From Rhabdobacter roseus (GTDB lineage: Bacteria; Bacteroidota; Bacteroidia; Cytophagales; Spirosomataceae), in assembly GCF_014202275.1 (NCBI RefSeq), contig NZ_JACHGF010000007.1, forward strand, positions 1 through 64,000: a stretch of 64,000 nucleotides of DNA, in the 5' to 3' direction. Below are positions 3,919 to 34,574 of this stretch, one piece after another; within the stretch, counting starts at the first letter, position 1, and the number at the start of each line of letters is the position of its first letter. The position numbers and the translations under genes were made by a program. Under the pieces are notes generated by a model that ran no database searches, was not told the origin of the DNA, and saw nothing but the letters and a program-made list of their open reading frames with translations.

Positions 3919-4692
3919 ATGAAAAAATATACGACGTTTCTTTCTTTCTTGTCCTTGGTAGCCTTGTCGCTGCTGCTGTGGCAGTGCAATATGGGCTCGG
4001 CCGACTCCGTTTCGCCCAACCAGAACGGCACCGGCGGCTCCATGGCGCGCTTCGCCATCACCGGCAACACGCTCTACATCGTGACCCGCCAGAGCCTGGA
4101 CGTCTACGACATCACCCAGCCCGACGCCCCCACGCGCCAGGCCAAAGCCGAGCTGGGCCTAGGCATTGAGACGATCTTCCCCTACCGCCAAAACCTCTTC
4201 GTGGGCGCCAACGACGGCATGTACATCTTCAACAACCAGCAGCCGCAAGCCCCTACCCTGCTGAGCAAGTACACCCATGTGATGAGCTGCGACCCCGTGG
4301 TGGTGCAAAACCAGTACGCCTACGTGACCCTACGCGGCGGCGTGGGCTGTCGGCAGTGGGTCAACAACAGCTCCCTGGACGTGGTGGATGTCTCGGACCC
4401 GGCCAACCCAAAGCTCATCAACAGCCAGCCGATGCAGTCGCCCTACGGGCTGGGCGTGGACGGCGACAAGCTCTTTGTGTGTGAAGGTATCTCCGGCCTG
4501 AAGGTCTTTGACATCAGCGACCCCACCCAGCCCCGGCTCCACCACAACTACCCCGAGGTGGCCTCCTATGACGTGATTCCGCGCCAAAACCTGCTGATCG
4601 TGACGGGACAAAACGGGCTGTACCAGTACCGCTACGGAGATAACATCGCCGAAAATTCCATGGAACTCCTGAGCAAAATCCCCGTGGAATGA
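3919..4692 (+). CDS. LVIVD-repeat beta-propeller lipoprotein
   Basis: The 257-residue product has a lipoprotein signal peptide with lipobox LWQC. At least four LVIVD-type repeats follow (LYIVTRQSLDVYDITQPDAP, MYIFNNQQPQAP, SLDVVDVSDPANP, LKVFDISDPTQP), the classic pattern of this propeller family, which is usually on the cell surface and of unknown ligand. It follows a shorter LVIVD lipoprotein and overlaps the next gene by four bases (ATGA at 4689-4692), so the three are probably translated together. The pairing of two propeller lipoproteins with an outer-membrane protein suggests a surface complex, but that is inference. Confidence 0.8.
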   Translation: MKKYTTFLSFLSLVALSLLLWQCNMGSADSVSPNQNGTGGSMARFAITGNTLYIVTRQSLDVYDITQPDAPTRQAKAELGLGIETIFPYRQNLFVGANDGMYIFNNQQPQAPTLLSKYTHVMSCDPVVVQNQYAYVTLRGGVGCRQWVNNSSLDVVDVSDPANPKLINSQPMQSPYGLGVDGDKLFVCEGISGLKVFDISDPTQPRLHHNYPEVASYDVIPRQNLLIVTGQNGLYQYRYGDNIAENSMELLSKIPVE

Positions 4693-12107: not shown

Positions 12108-12530
12108 ATGAACAAGAATGGACCCATCATAATAATCGAAGATGATCTTGAAGATCAGGAGTTTCTGGAAGAGGTTTTTCAAAAATTAGCCTATCCCAAC
12201 GAACTTATTTTTTTCACGGATGGGCTGAAAGCCCTCGAATTTTTGAATAAGGAGGAGGTGAATCCCTTTCTTATTCTTTCGGATATAAACATGCCCAAAC
12301 TGGACGGCTTTGCGCTTAGGGATAAGCTAAAAACCGATGCCGCTTTGACAATAAAGTGCATTCCGTACCTCTTCTTTTCAACAGCCTTGAATCAGAAGGC
12401 CGTCATTCAGGCATACAGCGCGTCGGTACAAGGCTTTTTTGTCAAGCAGTCTTCCTTATCGGAATTAGAAAAAACGATTTCGGCTATTATGGAATATTGG
12501 AAACGCTGCGCTGCTCCCAATAATTTTTAA
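12108..12530 (+). CDS. single-domain response regulator (copy 1)
   Basis: The 140-residue protein is a stand-alone receiver domain. The acidic pocket is Asp12/Asp13, the phosphorylation site is Asp59 in LSDINMPKLDG, the switch residue is in FFSTA (Ser91/Thr92), and the conserved Lys is Lys113 in FFVKQ. There is no output domain, so it probably acts by protein contact in a phosphorelay. No histidine kinase gene is adjacent. By direct comparison it differs from the product at 13263-13685 at only 19 of 140 positions, so the two arose by duplication. Confidence 0.9.
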   Translation: MNKNGPIIIIEDDLEDQEFLEEVFQKLAYPNELIFFTDGLKALEFLNKEEVNPFLILSDINMPKLDGFALRDKLKTDAALTIKCIPYLFFSTALNQKAVIQAYSASVQGFFVKQSSLSELEKTISAIMEYWKRCAAPNNF

Positions 12531-13262: not shown

Positions 13263-13685
13263 ATGAATAAAAACGGCCCTATTATAATCATTGAAGATGA
13301 TGCGGACGACCAGGAAATATTAGAAGAAGTGTTCCGTAAATTAGCCTATCCGAATGAAATAATTTTCTTTTTTGACGGGCAAAAGGCTCTTGATTTTTTA
13401 AACCGGGAAGACGTCGTCCCCTTTCTTATTCTTTCGGATATTAACATGCCTAAGCTGGACGGATTTGCGCTCAGGGATAAGCTAAAAACCGACGCCGAGC
13501 TTTCCATCAAATGCATTCCGTACTTGTTTTTTTCTACGGCATTGAGCCAACAGGCGGTCATCCAGGCGTATAGTGCGTCGGTACAAGGTTTTTTTGTCAA
13601 ACAATCCACCATGGCCGAGTTAGAGAAAACGATCTCTGTCATTATGGAATACTGGAAACGTTGCGCCGCGCCTAATAATTTTTGA
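13263..13685 (+). CDS. single-domain response regulator (copy 2)
   Basis: This paralogue of the 12108-12530 product is also 140 residues, with the same phosphorylation Asp59, acidic pair Asp12/Asp13, Ser/Thr switch and Lys113. The changes cluster in the segments at residues 14-52 and 115-117, the alpha1/alpha2 side and the start of the last helix, while residues 53-78 are identical. This may alter which kinase or partner it meets. The pair is probably a fairly recent tandem duplication, although 732 bp of non-coding DNA lie between them. Confidence 0.9.
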   Translation: MNKNGPIIIIEDDADDQEILEEVFRKLAYPNEIIFFFDGQKALDFLNREDVVPFLILSDINMPKLDGFALRDKLKTDAELSIKCIPYLFFSTALSQQAVIQAYSASVQGFFVKQSTMAELEKTISVIMEYWKRCAAPNNF

Positions 13686-31296: not shown

Positions 31297-32124
31297 ATGA
31301 CTTACGAAGCCCTCTTCGAGCACATTCAGCAAAAGCAATCGTACCTCTGCGTGGGGCTCGACACCGACCTGCGTAAAGTACCCGCTCACCTACACCGCGA
31401 GCCCGACCCGATTTTTGCCTTCAACCGGCAGATCATCGACGCCACCGCCGACTACTGCGTGGCCTACAAACCCAACGTGGCCTTCTACGAAGCCCTGGGC
31501 CCGCGCGGCTGGGAGAGCTTGCAAAAAACGGTGGAGTACATTCCAAAAACCTACTTCACCATTGCCGACGCCAAGCGCGGCGACATCGGGAATACTTCCG
31601 GCCTCTACGCCCGGACGTTTTTCGACGCCTCCTCGTCGGGCCTCGACTTCGACGCCGTGACGGTGGCACCCTACATGGGCCGCGACTCGGTGACGCCTTT
31701 CCTGGATTTTGAAGGCAAATGGGTGATCCTGCTCGCGCTGACGTCCAACGTGGGTAGTGACGATTTTCAGCGCCTACCTACCCCCGAAGGTACCTTGTAC
31801 GAGCAGGTACTTCGCACGTCCCAGACCTGGGCCGGCCCCGACCGCCTCATGTACGTCGTGGGCGCTACCCAGGCCGACGCCCTCCAGCAGATCCGGCAGC
31901 TGGTACCCGAGCATTTCCTGCTGGTACCCGGCGTGGGGGCCCAGGGCGGCAGCCTGGAGGAAGTCTCGCGCTACGGCATGAACCGATCCTGCGGATTGCT
32001 CGTTAATGCCTCACGGAGTATCATTTACGCCAGCGCCGGTCCTGACTTCGCCGAAAAAGCCCGGCAGGAAGCCCAGGTGCTACAACTGGAAATGGCCAGG
32101 TACCTGGAGAAGTACCTGGGGTAG
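31297..32124 (+). CDS. pyrF: orotidine 5'-phosphate decarboxylase
   Basis: The 275-residue enzyme makes UMP from OMP. It is of the longer type seen in Bacteroidota and mycobacteria: the catalytic [10 protein letters not shown] segment near residue 92, an early CVGLDTDL motif, and the PGVGAQGG phosphate-binding segment near residue 206. The last codons (RYLEKYLG) and the following 37 bp are duplicated at 32298-32358. This duplication probably does not affect the protein because the copy lies after the stop. The window also contains pyrB, in a separate place. Confidence 0.95.
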
Positions 32125-32160
32125 TTTGAAAAATGGCGACGCCCGGCGTGGCGGTAAGAA
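32100..32160 (+). repeat. 61-bp direct repeat, copy A (3' end of pyrF)
   Basis: The segment covers the last eight codons and stop of pyrF plus 36 bp after it. It recurs at 32298-32358 with two base differences. Confidence 0.95.
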
Positions 32161-32183
32161 CCCGGCGTGGCGACGCCCGATTT

Positions 32184-32214
32184 ACCCGGCTAACCCGGCT
32201 AACCGGCTAACCCC
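32184..32214 (+). repeat. short tandem repeat acccggcta
   Basis: Three successive copies of a unit near cccggctaa, the last losing one C. It leads straight into the 93-bp repeat. Confidence 0.8.
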
Positions 32215-32298
32215 GATTTATAATCGGGCGTTGCATCTGATTTGCGTTTTAAACGCAAATCAGTACCCGTCTCCGATTGCAAATCGGGACGAGCACAG
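32206..32298 (+). repeat. 93-bp palindromic repeat, copy 1
   Basis: The element contains three small inverted repeats: cccgatttataatcggg, gatttgcgttttaaacgcaaatc, and ccgattgcaaatcgg. It matches 33030-33122 at 87 of 93 positions with no gap. It is in the same orientation as the second copy, 824 bp apart. The palindromes suggest a REP- or MITE-like element. No transposase is encoded nearby. Confidence 0.9.
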
Positions 32299-32358
32299 TA
32301 CCTGGAGAAGTACCTGGGGTAGTTTGGGAAATGGCGACGCCCGGCGTGGCGGTAAGAA
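32298..32358 (+). repeat. 61-bp direct repeat, copy B
   Basis: This is the duplicate of the pyrF tail, beginning directly after the 93-bp repeat and ending before the antitoxin gene. It cannot be translated as part of pyrF. Confidence 0.95.
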
Positions 32359-32404
32359 TTTAGTAGATAATAAAATTCGCATTACCACTAAAAAAGAATG
32401 AATC

Positions 32405-32641
32405 ATGAGAGCCATAGAAGCTACCGGAGAAATCGATAAAAAAGGGGTCTTACGATTAGACGGCCCTTTGTCGTTAAGAGAAAAGAAGGTAAAAGTAATT
32501 ATTCTCATGTCGGAAGAAGACGAGGAAATAGAGGAAAAACGCTGGTTATCAGCTATGACAAGCAACCCAGCTTTCGACTTTTTGCATCAAGAACAAGAAA
32601 ACCAATATTCTCTTCAAGATGGTGAGCCATTCCATGATTAA
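32405..32641 (+). CDS. antitoxin-like protein of a PemK/MazF module
   Basis: The 78-residue acidic protein starts with a strand-rich N-terminus (MRAIEATGEIDKKGVLRLD) and a VKVIILMSEEDEEIEE segment, then a flexible C-terminus with SNPAFDFLHQEQE and DGEPFHD. This is the typical architecture of small antitoxins next to PemK/MazF toxins: an N-terminal DNA-binding or dimerisation part and a C-terminal toxin-binding tail. It overlaps the toxin start by 8 bp (32634-32641), strongly suggesting coupling. It is intact while the toxin is not. Confidence 0.7.
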   Translation: MRAIEATGEIDKKGVLRLDGPLSLREKKVKVIILMSEEDEEIEEKRWLSAMTSNPAFDFLHQEQENQYSLQDGEPFHD

Positions 32642-32976
32642 AGGGAAAATTGTGCTTGTTCCTTTTCCGTTTGATGATTTTAGCGGAACCAAAGTCAGGC
32701 CAGCAGTTTGTCTAACGGACAAGATTTGGTTACTATCATCATGTCGTTATAGCTTTCATCAGCAGCCAAGTGCCTGCAACTTTTGAAATGTCAGATTTGC
32801 TGATTGAAAGAAAAGATATTGATTTTAATGTAACGGGACTTCGTGTAGATTCAGTTATAAAATTACACAGGCTGGTAACTATACCCGTAAATCTTATAAG
32901 AAGACAACTGGGCAGTATTTCCCCAAAACAGCAATCTGAGATAGATAAAAAGCTTAAGATATTATTTGGTTTGTAG
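32634..32976 (+). pseudogene. frameshifted PemK/MazF-family toxin
   Basis: ATG 32634 opens MIKGKIVLVPFPFDDFSGTKVRPAVCLTDKI, the N-terminal strand and KVRPA motif of PemK/MazF endoribonucleases, but the frame ends at 32784-32786. The family sequence resumes in the next frame (GYYHHVVIAFISSQVPATFE...TGLRVDSVIKLHRLVT...), which reads to 32976. The shift lies at 32725-32727, where a run of T has one base too many. As drawn, the ribonuclease is not made. An assembly error in a T run is the other explanation. Confidence 0.85.
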
Positions 32977-33029
32977 TAAGAATAATTATTAGAAGCTGAT
33001 TTTTACTTACTAGTATAATCATTACCCGA

Positions 33030-33122
33030 GCTAACCCCGATATGTAATCGGGCGTTGTATCTAACTTGCGTTTTAAACGCAAATCAGAACCCGTCTCCGA
33101 TTGCAAATCGGGACGAGCACAG
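33030..33122 (+). repeat. 93-bp palindromic repeat, copy 2
   Basis: It matches 32206-32298 with six substitutions and no gap. It lies just after the toxin pseudogene, so the two copies flank the toxin-antitoxin cassette. Confidence 0.9.
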
Positions 33123-33148
33123 AGTTGCAAATCGGGACGAGCACAGAT
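33101..33148 (+). repeat. tandem 24-bp repeat
   Basis: The unit ttgcaaatcgggacgagcac plus four bases occurs twice in a row (33101-33124 and 33125-33148). A partial third copy with an insertion follows to about 33190. Confidence 0.85.
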
Positions 33149-33347
33149 CTCCGATTGCAATCGGGAGGCGCTCCGCCGGGACGAGCGACGTACCACAGTA
33201 ACAAAGGAAGTTATAGAATACTTCAAAAGAGACGAAAGAAATAAATCCCTGTGTATTAGCGTAATGCTTTTCAGAAAACAAAAATCATAACCCAATCAAA
33301 GTACCTTTACCCCAAAGTACCCTTCCCAAAAATCATTTTTTTCATTC

Positions 33348-34574
33348 ATGCAATTCACCGACACCGAAACGCAAACCCTGGATATCGACGCCGCCCAGCT
33401 GTGCCAGCAGTACGGCTCGCCGCTGTACGTGTACCAGGGGAGTATCATTCGCCGCAAAGTACAGGCCCTGCAAGAGGCCTTTTCCGGGGTAACGATGAAG
33501 ATCAAGTACGCCTGCAAGGCCAATACCAACCTGGCCGTCCTGCGCCTGATGCGCGAACTGGGCGTGGAGCTCGACGTGGTGTCGCCGGGGGAATTTGAGA
33601 TGGGAAAATACGCGGGCTACGCGCCCGAGCAAATGACCTTTACGCCCAGCGGGGTACCTTACGAGGAGGTACGCACCGCCGTGGACGAAGGAGCGACCGT
33701 CAACGTCGATAGCATTTCGCTGCTCGAATGGTTCGGTCAAACCTACGGCAGCAGCAAGCCCTGCCTCATCCGGCTCAAACCCAACGTGACCGCGGGCGGC
33801 CACGATAAAATCATGACGGCCCATCCCGACTCCAAGTTTGGGATCTCGGTGACCCTGCTGGACGACATTCTTGCCTTCGTGAACAAGTACTCGATCAACG
33901 TCATTGGGCTGCACCAGCACACCGGCTCCGACATCAAGGAGGCCGAGCCGTTTCTGAAAGCGGCCCGTGTACTCTTTGAGGCGGCCATGCACTTCCCCAA
34001 CCTTCAGATCATCGACCTGGGCGGGGGCTTCAAGGTAGGTTATAAGCCCGACGACGCCGTGACCGATATGCAGCACCTGGGCGCGGAGATTACCGAGGGC
34101 TTCCGGGCGTTTTGCGCGCGCTACGGCCGCGAGCTGCAGCTGTGGTTTGAGCCGGGCAAGTACCTGGTGAGCGAGTGCGGGTACCTGCTCACGACGGCCA
34201 CGGTGGTGAAGGAAGACCCGGCCCGGACGTTTGTACACGTCGATTCTGGCCTGAATCACTTGATCCGGCCCATGATGTACGGCTCGTACCACCACATCCT
34301 GAACACAACCAATCCCGACGGCCCGCTCAAAACCTACAACGTGGTGGGGTACATTTGCGAAACCGACACCTTCGCCACCGACCGCGAACTACCCGAAGTA
34401 CGCCCCGGCGACGTGCTGGCGTTCCTGAACGCCGGTGCCTACGGCTTCACGATGAGCTCCAACTACAACGCCCGCTACCGCCCCGCCGAGGTACTGGTGG
34501 ACCAAGGCGAAGCCCGGCTGGTGCGCCGCCGCGAAACGCTCGACGACCTGCTGCGTACGCAGATAGATTTATAA
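33348..34574 (+). CDS. lysA: diaminopimelate decarboxylase
   Basis: The 408-residue PLP enzyme converts meso-diaminopimelate to L-lysine. The PLP Lys57 lies in KIKYACKANTN, the HQHTGSDI motif near residue 188 binds the phosphate, and IDLGGGFKVGY near residue 225 is the Gly loop. The C-terminal CETDTFATDRELPE segment carries the Cys that completes the partner active site. Length and motif order are normal. It is convergent with katE and shares a two-way terminator with it. Confidence 0.95.
   Translation: MQFTDTETQTLDIDAAQLCQQYGSPLYVYQGSIIRRKVQALQEAFSGVTMKIKYACKANTNLAVLRLMRELGVELDVVSPGEFEMGKYAGYAPEQMTFTPSGVPYEEVRTAVDEGATVNVDSISLLEWFGQTYGSSKPCLIRLKPNVTAGGHDKIMTAHPDSKFGISVTLLDDILAFVNKYSINVIGLHQHTGSDIKEAEPFLKAARVLFEAAMHFPNLQIIDLGGGFKVGYKPDDAVTDMQHLGAEITEGFRAFCARYGRELQLWFEPGKYLVSECGYLLTTATVVKEDPARTFVHVDSGLNHLIRPMMYGSYHHILNTTNPDGPLKTYNVVGYICETDTFATDRELPEVRPGDVLAFLNAGAYGFTMSSNYNARYRPAEVLVDQGEARLVRRRETLDDLLRTQIDL

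What the first reader, a model, noticed from the sequence alone, without database searches (positions are those of the whole stretch)
32100..32358. 61-bp pyrF tail duplicated 198 bp downstream
The final codons and stop of pyrF are repeated exactly after the 93-bp element, with two changes in 61 bp. The unit 32100-32297 therefore looks like a partial tandem duplication, or an insertion that copied its target, and may mark how the cassette arrived.
Basis: seen in the sequence. Interest (0 to 1): 0.55.

Follow-up and report, generated by a model that had tools for sequence, protein, structure and literature searches.

The report
Tandem repeat beside pyrF, later split
The end of the pyrF gene was copied together with a neighbouring palindromic repeat of a mobile type, a known habit of such repeats, and a toxin-antitoxin gene pair then most likely landed inside the second copy; it is a tidy local history rather than a new kind of element.

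Summary
32100-32160 recurs at 32298-32358 (59/61 identical, offset 198); the last seven codons and stop of pyrF are exact. In 42 other loci (36 distinct sequences) where pyrF is followed by lysA, the gap is -1 to 66 bp with a single tail; here it is 1,223 bp. The 93-bp element belongs to a dispersed palindromic repeat family whose copies also flank, on both sides, a REP-associated tyrosine transposase (RAYT) gene. Best explanation: the unit 32100-32297 (pyrF tail, spacer, element) was tandemly duplicated, and a low-GC toxin-antitoxin cassette then entered the second unit. That unit is probably not partial: its other end is the element at 33030-33121, closest relative of the first (94%; next best over nearly full length 83%). 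Routine target copying is not supported: of 37 element sites only this one and one tandem array have clear flanking direct repeats. Tandem REPIN units that include flanks are described in Pseudomonas (PMC3116915, passages), so this is a new member of a known kind. Order of events and junction mechanism are inferred. The toxin frame is broken.

The parts
31297..32124 (+). pyrF (orotidine 5'-phosphate decarboxylase), open throughout
Evidence: ORF; relatives at 83% identity and below.
32100..32160 (+). tail copy 1: last 7 codons and stop of pyrF plus 36 nt
32161..32205 (+). spacer of unit 1, made of short modules seen elsewhere with the repeat family; absent or replaced in unit 2
32206..32297 (+). 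element 1: three-hairpin palindromic REP-like repeat
   Evidence: 101.7 bits, but the model was built from it among others; DNA fold z = -8.3
32298..32358 (+). tail copy 2, start of unit 2
32359..33019 (+). low-GC toxin-antitoxin cassette (35.7% GC against 54.1% for the window); right edge uncertain, 33019-33029
32405..32641 (+). antitoxin-like ORF, 78 aa; below-cutoff match to RelN antitoxin family NF050107
   Evidence: 43.2 bits, cutoff 70; no Pfam match; homologue in 2 of 199 other family genomes
32634..32976 (+). PemK/MazF-like toxin remnant; the reading frame changes between an N-terminal part (stop at 32784-32786) and a C-terminal part (listed ORF 32770-32976)
   Evidence: (PF02452, 27.1 bits, cutoff 23.1, C-terminal part only; N-terminal piece no match)
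33030..33121 (+). element 2, 87/93 identical to element 1 over 33030-33122; read as the end of unit 2
33123..33206 (+). further partial copies of the element's 3' hairpin, followed by GTACC
33348..34574 (+). lysA (diaminopimelate decarboxylase-like); directly follows pyrF in relatives
   Evidence: Gene name from the finding; no family search was run on it.

Best explanation
The locus is a two-unit tandem cluster of a RAYT-associated palindromic repeat (REP/REPIN type). Step 1 (shown by relatives): the ancestral locus was pyrF, a short gap, lysA. Step 2 (inferred): a repeat element with accessory modules came to lie just after pyrF. Step 3 (supported by sequence, mechanism inferred): a 198-bp unit of pyrF tail, spacer and element was tandemly duplicated by illegitimate recombination, template switching at the hairpins, or strand joining by the transposase. 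The junction runs from the right end of the element (GAGCACA) into GTACCTGG of pyrF with 1 to 5 bp of microhomology. Step 4 (order inferred): a low-GC toxin-antitoxin pair entered the second unit after GGTAAGAA and removed or replaced 21-45 bp of spacer, so that unit 1 still shows the unoccupied state beside the occupied unit 2. The copied tail is a passenger with no evident function; pyrF stays open.
For: The tail is single in 42 other pyrF-lysA loci, 36 distinct; the last 27 nt of pyrF score 25 downstream here and 10 or less in the other loci scored. Elements 1 and 2 are the most similar of 153 pairs of the 18 full-length copies taken (0.935; median 0.717), and the three most similar pairs are all neighbours in the same orientation. 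Tail copies differ at 2/61 sites and elements at 6/93, compatible with one age (Fisher p = 0.48). A second array on contig C12 (L148) has three tandem units of element plus left flank; the first flank starts in the last two codons and stop of an ORF (DNA, ORF, flank match). The repeat family flanks a RAYT gene on both sides (NF047646 102 bits, cutoff 80). Tandem REPINs including flanks (f1-REPIN-f2) are reported in Pseudomonas fluorescens (PMC3116915, passages).
Against: No intermediate (two tails and elements without cassette) is at hand; no other genome of the genus is held. The spacer of unit 1 is not recognisable left of element 2 beyond TTACCCG and GCTAACC, modules common in front of other copies, so reading unit 2 as one duplicated unit rests on element similarity, orientation and order. 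The third neighbour pair leads a distant pair only by 0.833 to 0.830, and two other neighbour pairs (C3; C12 outer pair) are not among the ten most similar. Partial copies reach 86-89% to element 1 over 51-55 nt. Gene conversion could also keep elements 1 and 2 alike. Junction microhomology is weak, and GTAC is very common here (641 against 246 expected).
Confidence: 0.72

Rival explanations
1. The cassette came first: it inserted between the tail and an element, and a later event (integration of a circle carrying tail-cassette-element by recombination in the element, or tandem duplication of an 824-bp unit followed by loss of one cassette) gave the present order.
For: Element 1 to element 2, and tail copy 2 to the end of element 2, both span 824 bp. 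Recombination in the 93-bp element would give exactly this order.
Against: Needs an extra step (loss of one cassette, or a second allele). The spacer of unit 1 has repeat-family modules not seen in unit 2, so unit 1 looks like the uninterrupted state.
Confidence: 0.17
2. The element (32161-32297) inserted by a mechanism that duplicates about 61 bp of target.
For: The tail copies bracket the element like a long target duplication.
Against: Of 37 element sites compared for flanking direct repeats, only this one and two sites of the C12 array stand clearly out; a 12-nt match at C1:936541 (p = 0.029) is in the repeat family's own sequence. IS200/IS605-type transposition makes no target duplication (recalled). 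The similarity of element 2 would stay unexplained.
Confidence: 0.06
3. Elements 1 and 2 are the ends of a composite mobile unit that carries the toxin-antitoxin pair and is moved by the RAYT.
For: Same-orientation element pairs also flank the RAYT gene and one to three ORFs elsewhere (C1 935-936.6 kb, C8 232-236 kb); the cassette lies between genes that are adjacent in relatives.
Against: Does not explain the pyrF tail inside the unit. The antitoxin homologues L217 and L218 have no element in their short fetched flanks. For the C8 and C1 pairs other flanking genes are missing as well in four compared stretches each, so clean insertion cannot be shown.
Confidence: 0.05

Closest known systems
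Tandem REPIN clusters of Pseudomonas fluorescens SBW25 (Bertels and Rainey 2011, PMC3116915; passages seen)
   Same: Tandem units of 5' flanking sequence, REPIN and short 3' flank, nearly identical including flanks.
   Different: Different repeat sequence and phylum; here the 5' flank contains the end of pyrF and the second unit is interrupted by a gene pair.
Atypical REP-like structures flanking TnpA-REP subclass 2.6 genes of Bacteroidetes (PMC6006769; passages seen)
   Same: Gene flanked by hairpins whose copies occur elsewhere; repeats without GT[AG]G; motifs NH[LIV]H, WQ, YIH[QN]NP of the paper's table row match the RAYT on C1 (NHLH, WQ, YIHQNP).
   Different: I did not place the protein in a tree and did not see the paper's repeat sequences (its supplementary files), so membership rests on motifs read by eye.
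REP sequences at join points of chromosomal tandem duplications in enterobacteria (recalled, not seen; the search listed no paper)
   Same: Palindromic repeats at the ends of duplications.
   Different: As recalled, those are large duplications made by recombination between two REPs; this unit is 198 bp with one end in pyrF.
PemK/MazF-type toxin-antitoxin modules (PF02452)
   Same: Antitoxin-like ORF followed by a toxin remnant with a C-terminal match.
   Different: Toxin frame broken here; antitoxin below the NF050107 cutoff.

Membership tests
RAYT-associated REP/REPIN family | Multicopy palindromic repeat | tested here: met
   79 model matches at E <= 0.01, both strands counted, in the own genome, the 12 training copies included; 37 sites after merging strands and dropping 5 weak ones. 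Hairpins predicted; 5 of 26 pairs have changes on both sides, but the covariation term is only -0.05. Whether every copy is intergenic was not checked.
RAYT-associated REP/REPIN family | Copies flank a REP-associated tyrosine transposase gene | tested here: met
   L152 4318-4373 and 5021-5071 flank the ORF that starts near 4440; NF047646 102 bits, cutoff 80. The genome's other two Y1-transposase genes have different flanking palindromes, read by eye.
RAYT-associated REP/REPIN family | GTAG-type tetranucleotide at the hairpin foot | tested here: not met
   Most full-length elements begin GCTAACC or GCTAGCC and end near GAGC. PMC6006769 says class 2.6 and 3 repeats lack GT[AG]G, so this excludes canonical GTAG REPs, not subclass 2.6.
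RAYT-associated REP/REPIN family | Mobilised by the RAYT | not testable with these tools
   Needs biochemistry or population sequencing.
Tandem REPIN cluster (f1-REPIN-f2 units) | At least two units of flank plus element in the same orientation, nearly identical | tested here: met
   59/61 and 87/93 identical, with the reservation that unit 2 is interrupted by the cassette; C12 array of three units.
Transposon insertion with target duplication | Duplicated flank recurs at other copies with similar length | tested here: not met
   37 sites; only the window site and two sites of the C12 array stand clearly out.
Functional type II PemK/MazF toxin-antitoxin module | Intact toxin reading frame | tested here: not met
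   Frame changes within the gene; homologues in L217 and L218 keep one open frame of about 113 aa.

The most novel reading that the evidence does not exclude
Same-orientation pairs of RAYT repeats act as a gene-capture system in these Bacteroidota: transposase-made joining of an element end to nearby DNA creates tandem units, which then serve as landing or exchange sites for small gene cassettes such as this toxin-antitoxin pair, the RAYT gene itself and other single genes.
Probability: 0.07. Interest if true: 0.6.

Novelty: new member of a known kind. Interest (0 to 1): 0.25.

Why it matters
If the order of events is right, the locus keeps an unoccupied and an occupied version of the same short stretch side by side, so a repeat duplication followed by a gene insertion can be read from one genome. 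It shows that tandem duplication of REP-type repeats can carry gene ends along, and adds a Bacteroidota case, with a second smaller one on contig C12, to a pattern described in Pseudomonas.

Tried and rejected
Rfam at gathering threshold: no match in the window. RAYT targeting of GTAC: GTAC lies within 20 nt of the right end in 7 of 18 full-length elements and of the left end in 5 of 18, against a background of 19%; the array members are not independent, so I do not claim it. Homology left of element 2 as proof of a second unit: rejected because the same modules precede other copies. Cassette relatives: antitoxin in 3 of 200 family genomes including this one, no match in plasmids at E 1e-3, no element in the short flanks of the two homologues. 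Clean insertion of gene units between other element pairs could not be shown because other flanking genes are missing too. Promoter-like and terminator-like sites are at the number expected from shuffles. Assembly error: unlikely because the copies differ and lie inside a 310-kb contig, but reads were not available. PMC3733652 was seen in passages and is not used as evidence.

Full report
Observation. The 61-bp repeat is real: 32100-32160 and 32298-32358, 59/61 identical, offset 198. The first 25 nt, which hold the last seven codons and stop of pyrF, are exact; the two changes come just after the stop. With seeds of 14, minimum length 35 and at most 3 kb between copies, three direct-repeat families were found in the whole window, two of them here.

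Ancestral state. pyrF is directly followed by lysA in 43 of 68 loci compared, this window counted. The other 42 loci hold 36 distinct sequences, among them named Dyadobacter species and Persicitalea jodogahamensis. Their gap is -1 to 66 bp, against 1,223 bp here. The last 27 nt of pyrF score 25 against the DNA downstream here, and 10 or less in the other loci scored; one locus, L070, had no DNA downstream. In the remaining 25 loci lysA was not found next to pyrF in the fetched flank, so they say nothing about the gap. No other genome of the same genus is held. A single tail without element or cassette is therefore ancestral; intermediates are not available.

The element. The 93-bp element folds into three hairpins (the covariation term is close to zero) and belongs to a dispersed family. 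A nucleotide search gave 25 matches in the own genome. A covariance model built from 12 copies gave 79 matches at E <= 0.01, both strands counted and the training copies included (150 of 2,432 first-look candidates were scored, so the number may be low). Of 28 related genomes 10 have matches at E <= 0.001, the strongest being G015 with 26; G015's own pyrF-lysA gap is 56 bp. The genome has three matches to the Y1 transposase family. The one on contig C1 is flanked on both sides by copies of this element in the same orientation and matches the REP-associated tyrosine transposase model above its cutoff. The other two lie beside different palindromes, read by eye. The C1 protein's motifs NHLH, WQ and YIHQNP agree with those printed for subclass 2.6, a mostly Bacteroidetes group whose genes are flanked by atypical hairpins with copies elsewhere in the genome (PMC6006769, passages).

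What the repeat is. Element 2 at 33030-33121 is 94% identical to element 1. The next-best copy over nearly full length is 83%; some partial copies reach 86-89% over 51-55 nt. I compared the 18 full-length sites among the 37: of 153 pairs the median identity is 0.717. The three most similar pairs (window 0.935, C8 0.902, C12 0.833) are all neighbours in the same orientation, the third only just ahead of a distant pair at 0.830. By my count of that list 6 of the 153 pairs are neighbours within 4 kb; two of the six (C3, and the outer C12 pair) are not among the ten most similar. Local duplication is the likely source of the window pair. On contig C12 three units of element plus left flank stand in tandem. 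The first flank begins in the last two codons and stop of an ORF that I read as glycosyltransferase-like without a family search, a smaller parallel to the pyrF tail.

Does insertion copy the target? I compared the 250-nt flanks of 37 element sites (from, strands merged, five weaker sites dropped). Flanking direct repeats clearly above the mixed-pair background exist at the window site (61 bp) and at two of the three C12 array sites. C1:936541 reaches p = 0.029 with a 12-nt match in the repeat family's own sequence, and C5:54604 p = 0.067 with 11 nt. A target-copying insertion is not the rule.

The cassette. The stretch 32359-33019 has 35.7% GC against 54.1% for the window. It holds an antitoxin-like ORF, related to RelN antitoxins below cutoff, and a PemK-like toxin whose frame is broken; two homologous loci keep one open frame. 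Antitoxin homologues occur in 2 of 199 other genomes of the family, without elements in the fetched flanks.

Interpretation. The simplest history is: element next to pyrF; tandem duplication of the 198-bp unit with the tail as passenger; entry of the cassette into unit 2 with loss of 21-45 bp of spacer. Unit 1 then shows the unoccupied state. The divergences of tails (2/61) and elements (6/93) fit one event (p = 0.48), but these are few sites. The order of the last two steps, and the molecular mechanism, are inferred. Tandem REPIN clusters whose units include flanking sequence are described for P. fluorescens (PMC3116915, passages); the present case is a new member of that kind.

Limits. Element similarity could be maintained by gene conversion. 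The modules left of element 2 are too common in the family to prove unit 2. Junction microhomology is weak, and GTAC is over-represented here, so its presence at the junction is poor evidence. Literature was searched in three calls, and three papers were seen in passages only.

Noticed in passing
whole window; also 217,834 bases (separators included) of other own-genome stretches: GGTACTT/AAGTACC is the commonest 7-mer: 184 sites on both strands in 64 kb against about 7 expected from base composition, and 2.68 per kb in the other stretches; stretches of G015 and G051 show far less excess. Its share outside ORFs is 0.30 against 0.14 expected, but most sites lie inside ORFs. The density recalls DNA uptake sequences (recalled comparison); cause unknown.
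   Followed up: partly
L148 7226-7640 (G000:C12): Three tandem units of element plus flank; the first flank starts in the last codons and stop of an ORF that I read as glycosyltransferase-like.
   Followed up: yes
L146 12826-14117 (G000:C1): Two 52-nt element halves, identical to each other and in the same orientation, bracket a single 272-aa ORF; that ORF and two genes beyond it were not found beside the conserved neighbour genes in four relatives.
   Followed up: partly
L141 4385-7839 (G000:C8): Two 90% identical elements in the same orientation bracket three ORFs (one read by eye as a sigma factor); G015 has an element on the same side of the conserved permease-like gene.
   Followed up: partly
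L155 4177-4258 and 6513-6600 (G000:C3): Two neighbouring ORFs of 745 and 735 aa that look alike each end with a copy of the element, as if gene and element were duplicated together; not aligned.
   Followed up: no
L157 and L158 (G000:C17, C9): Two further Y1-transposase genes, each beside its own different palindromic repeat; L158 also passes NF047646, L157 was not scanned.
   Followed up: no
12108-12407 and 13263-13562: A 300-nt direct repeat at 75% identity, spacing 1,155; perhaps paralogous genes.
   Followed up: no
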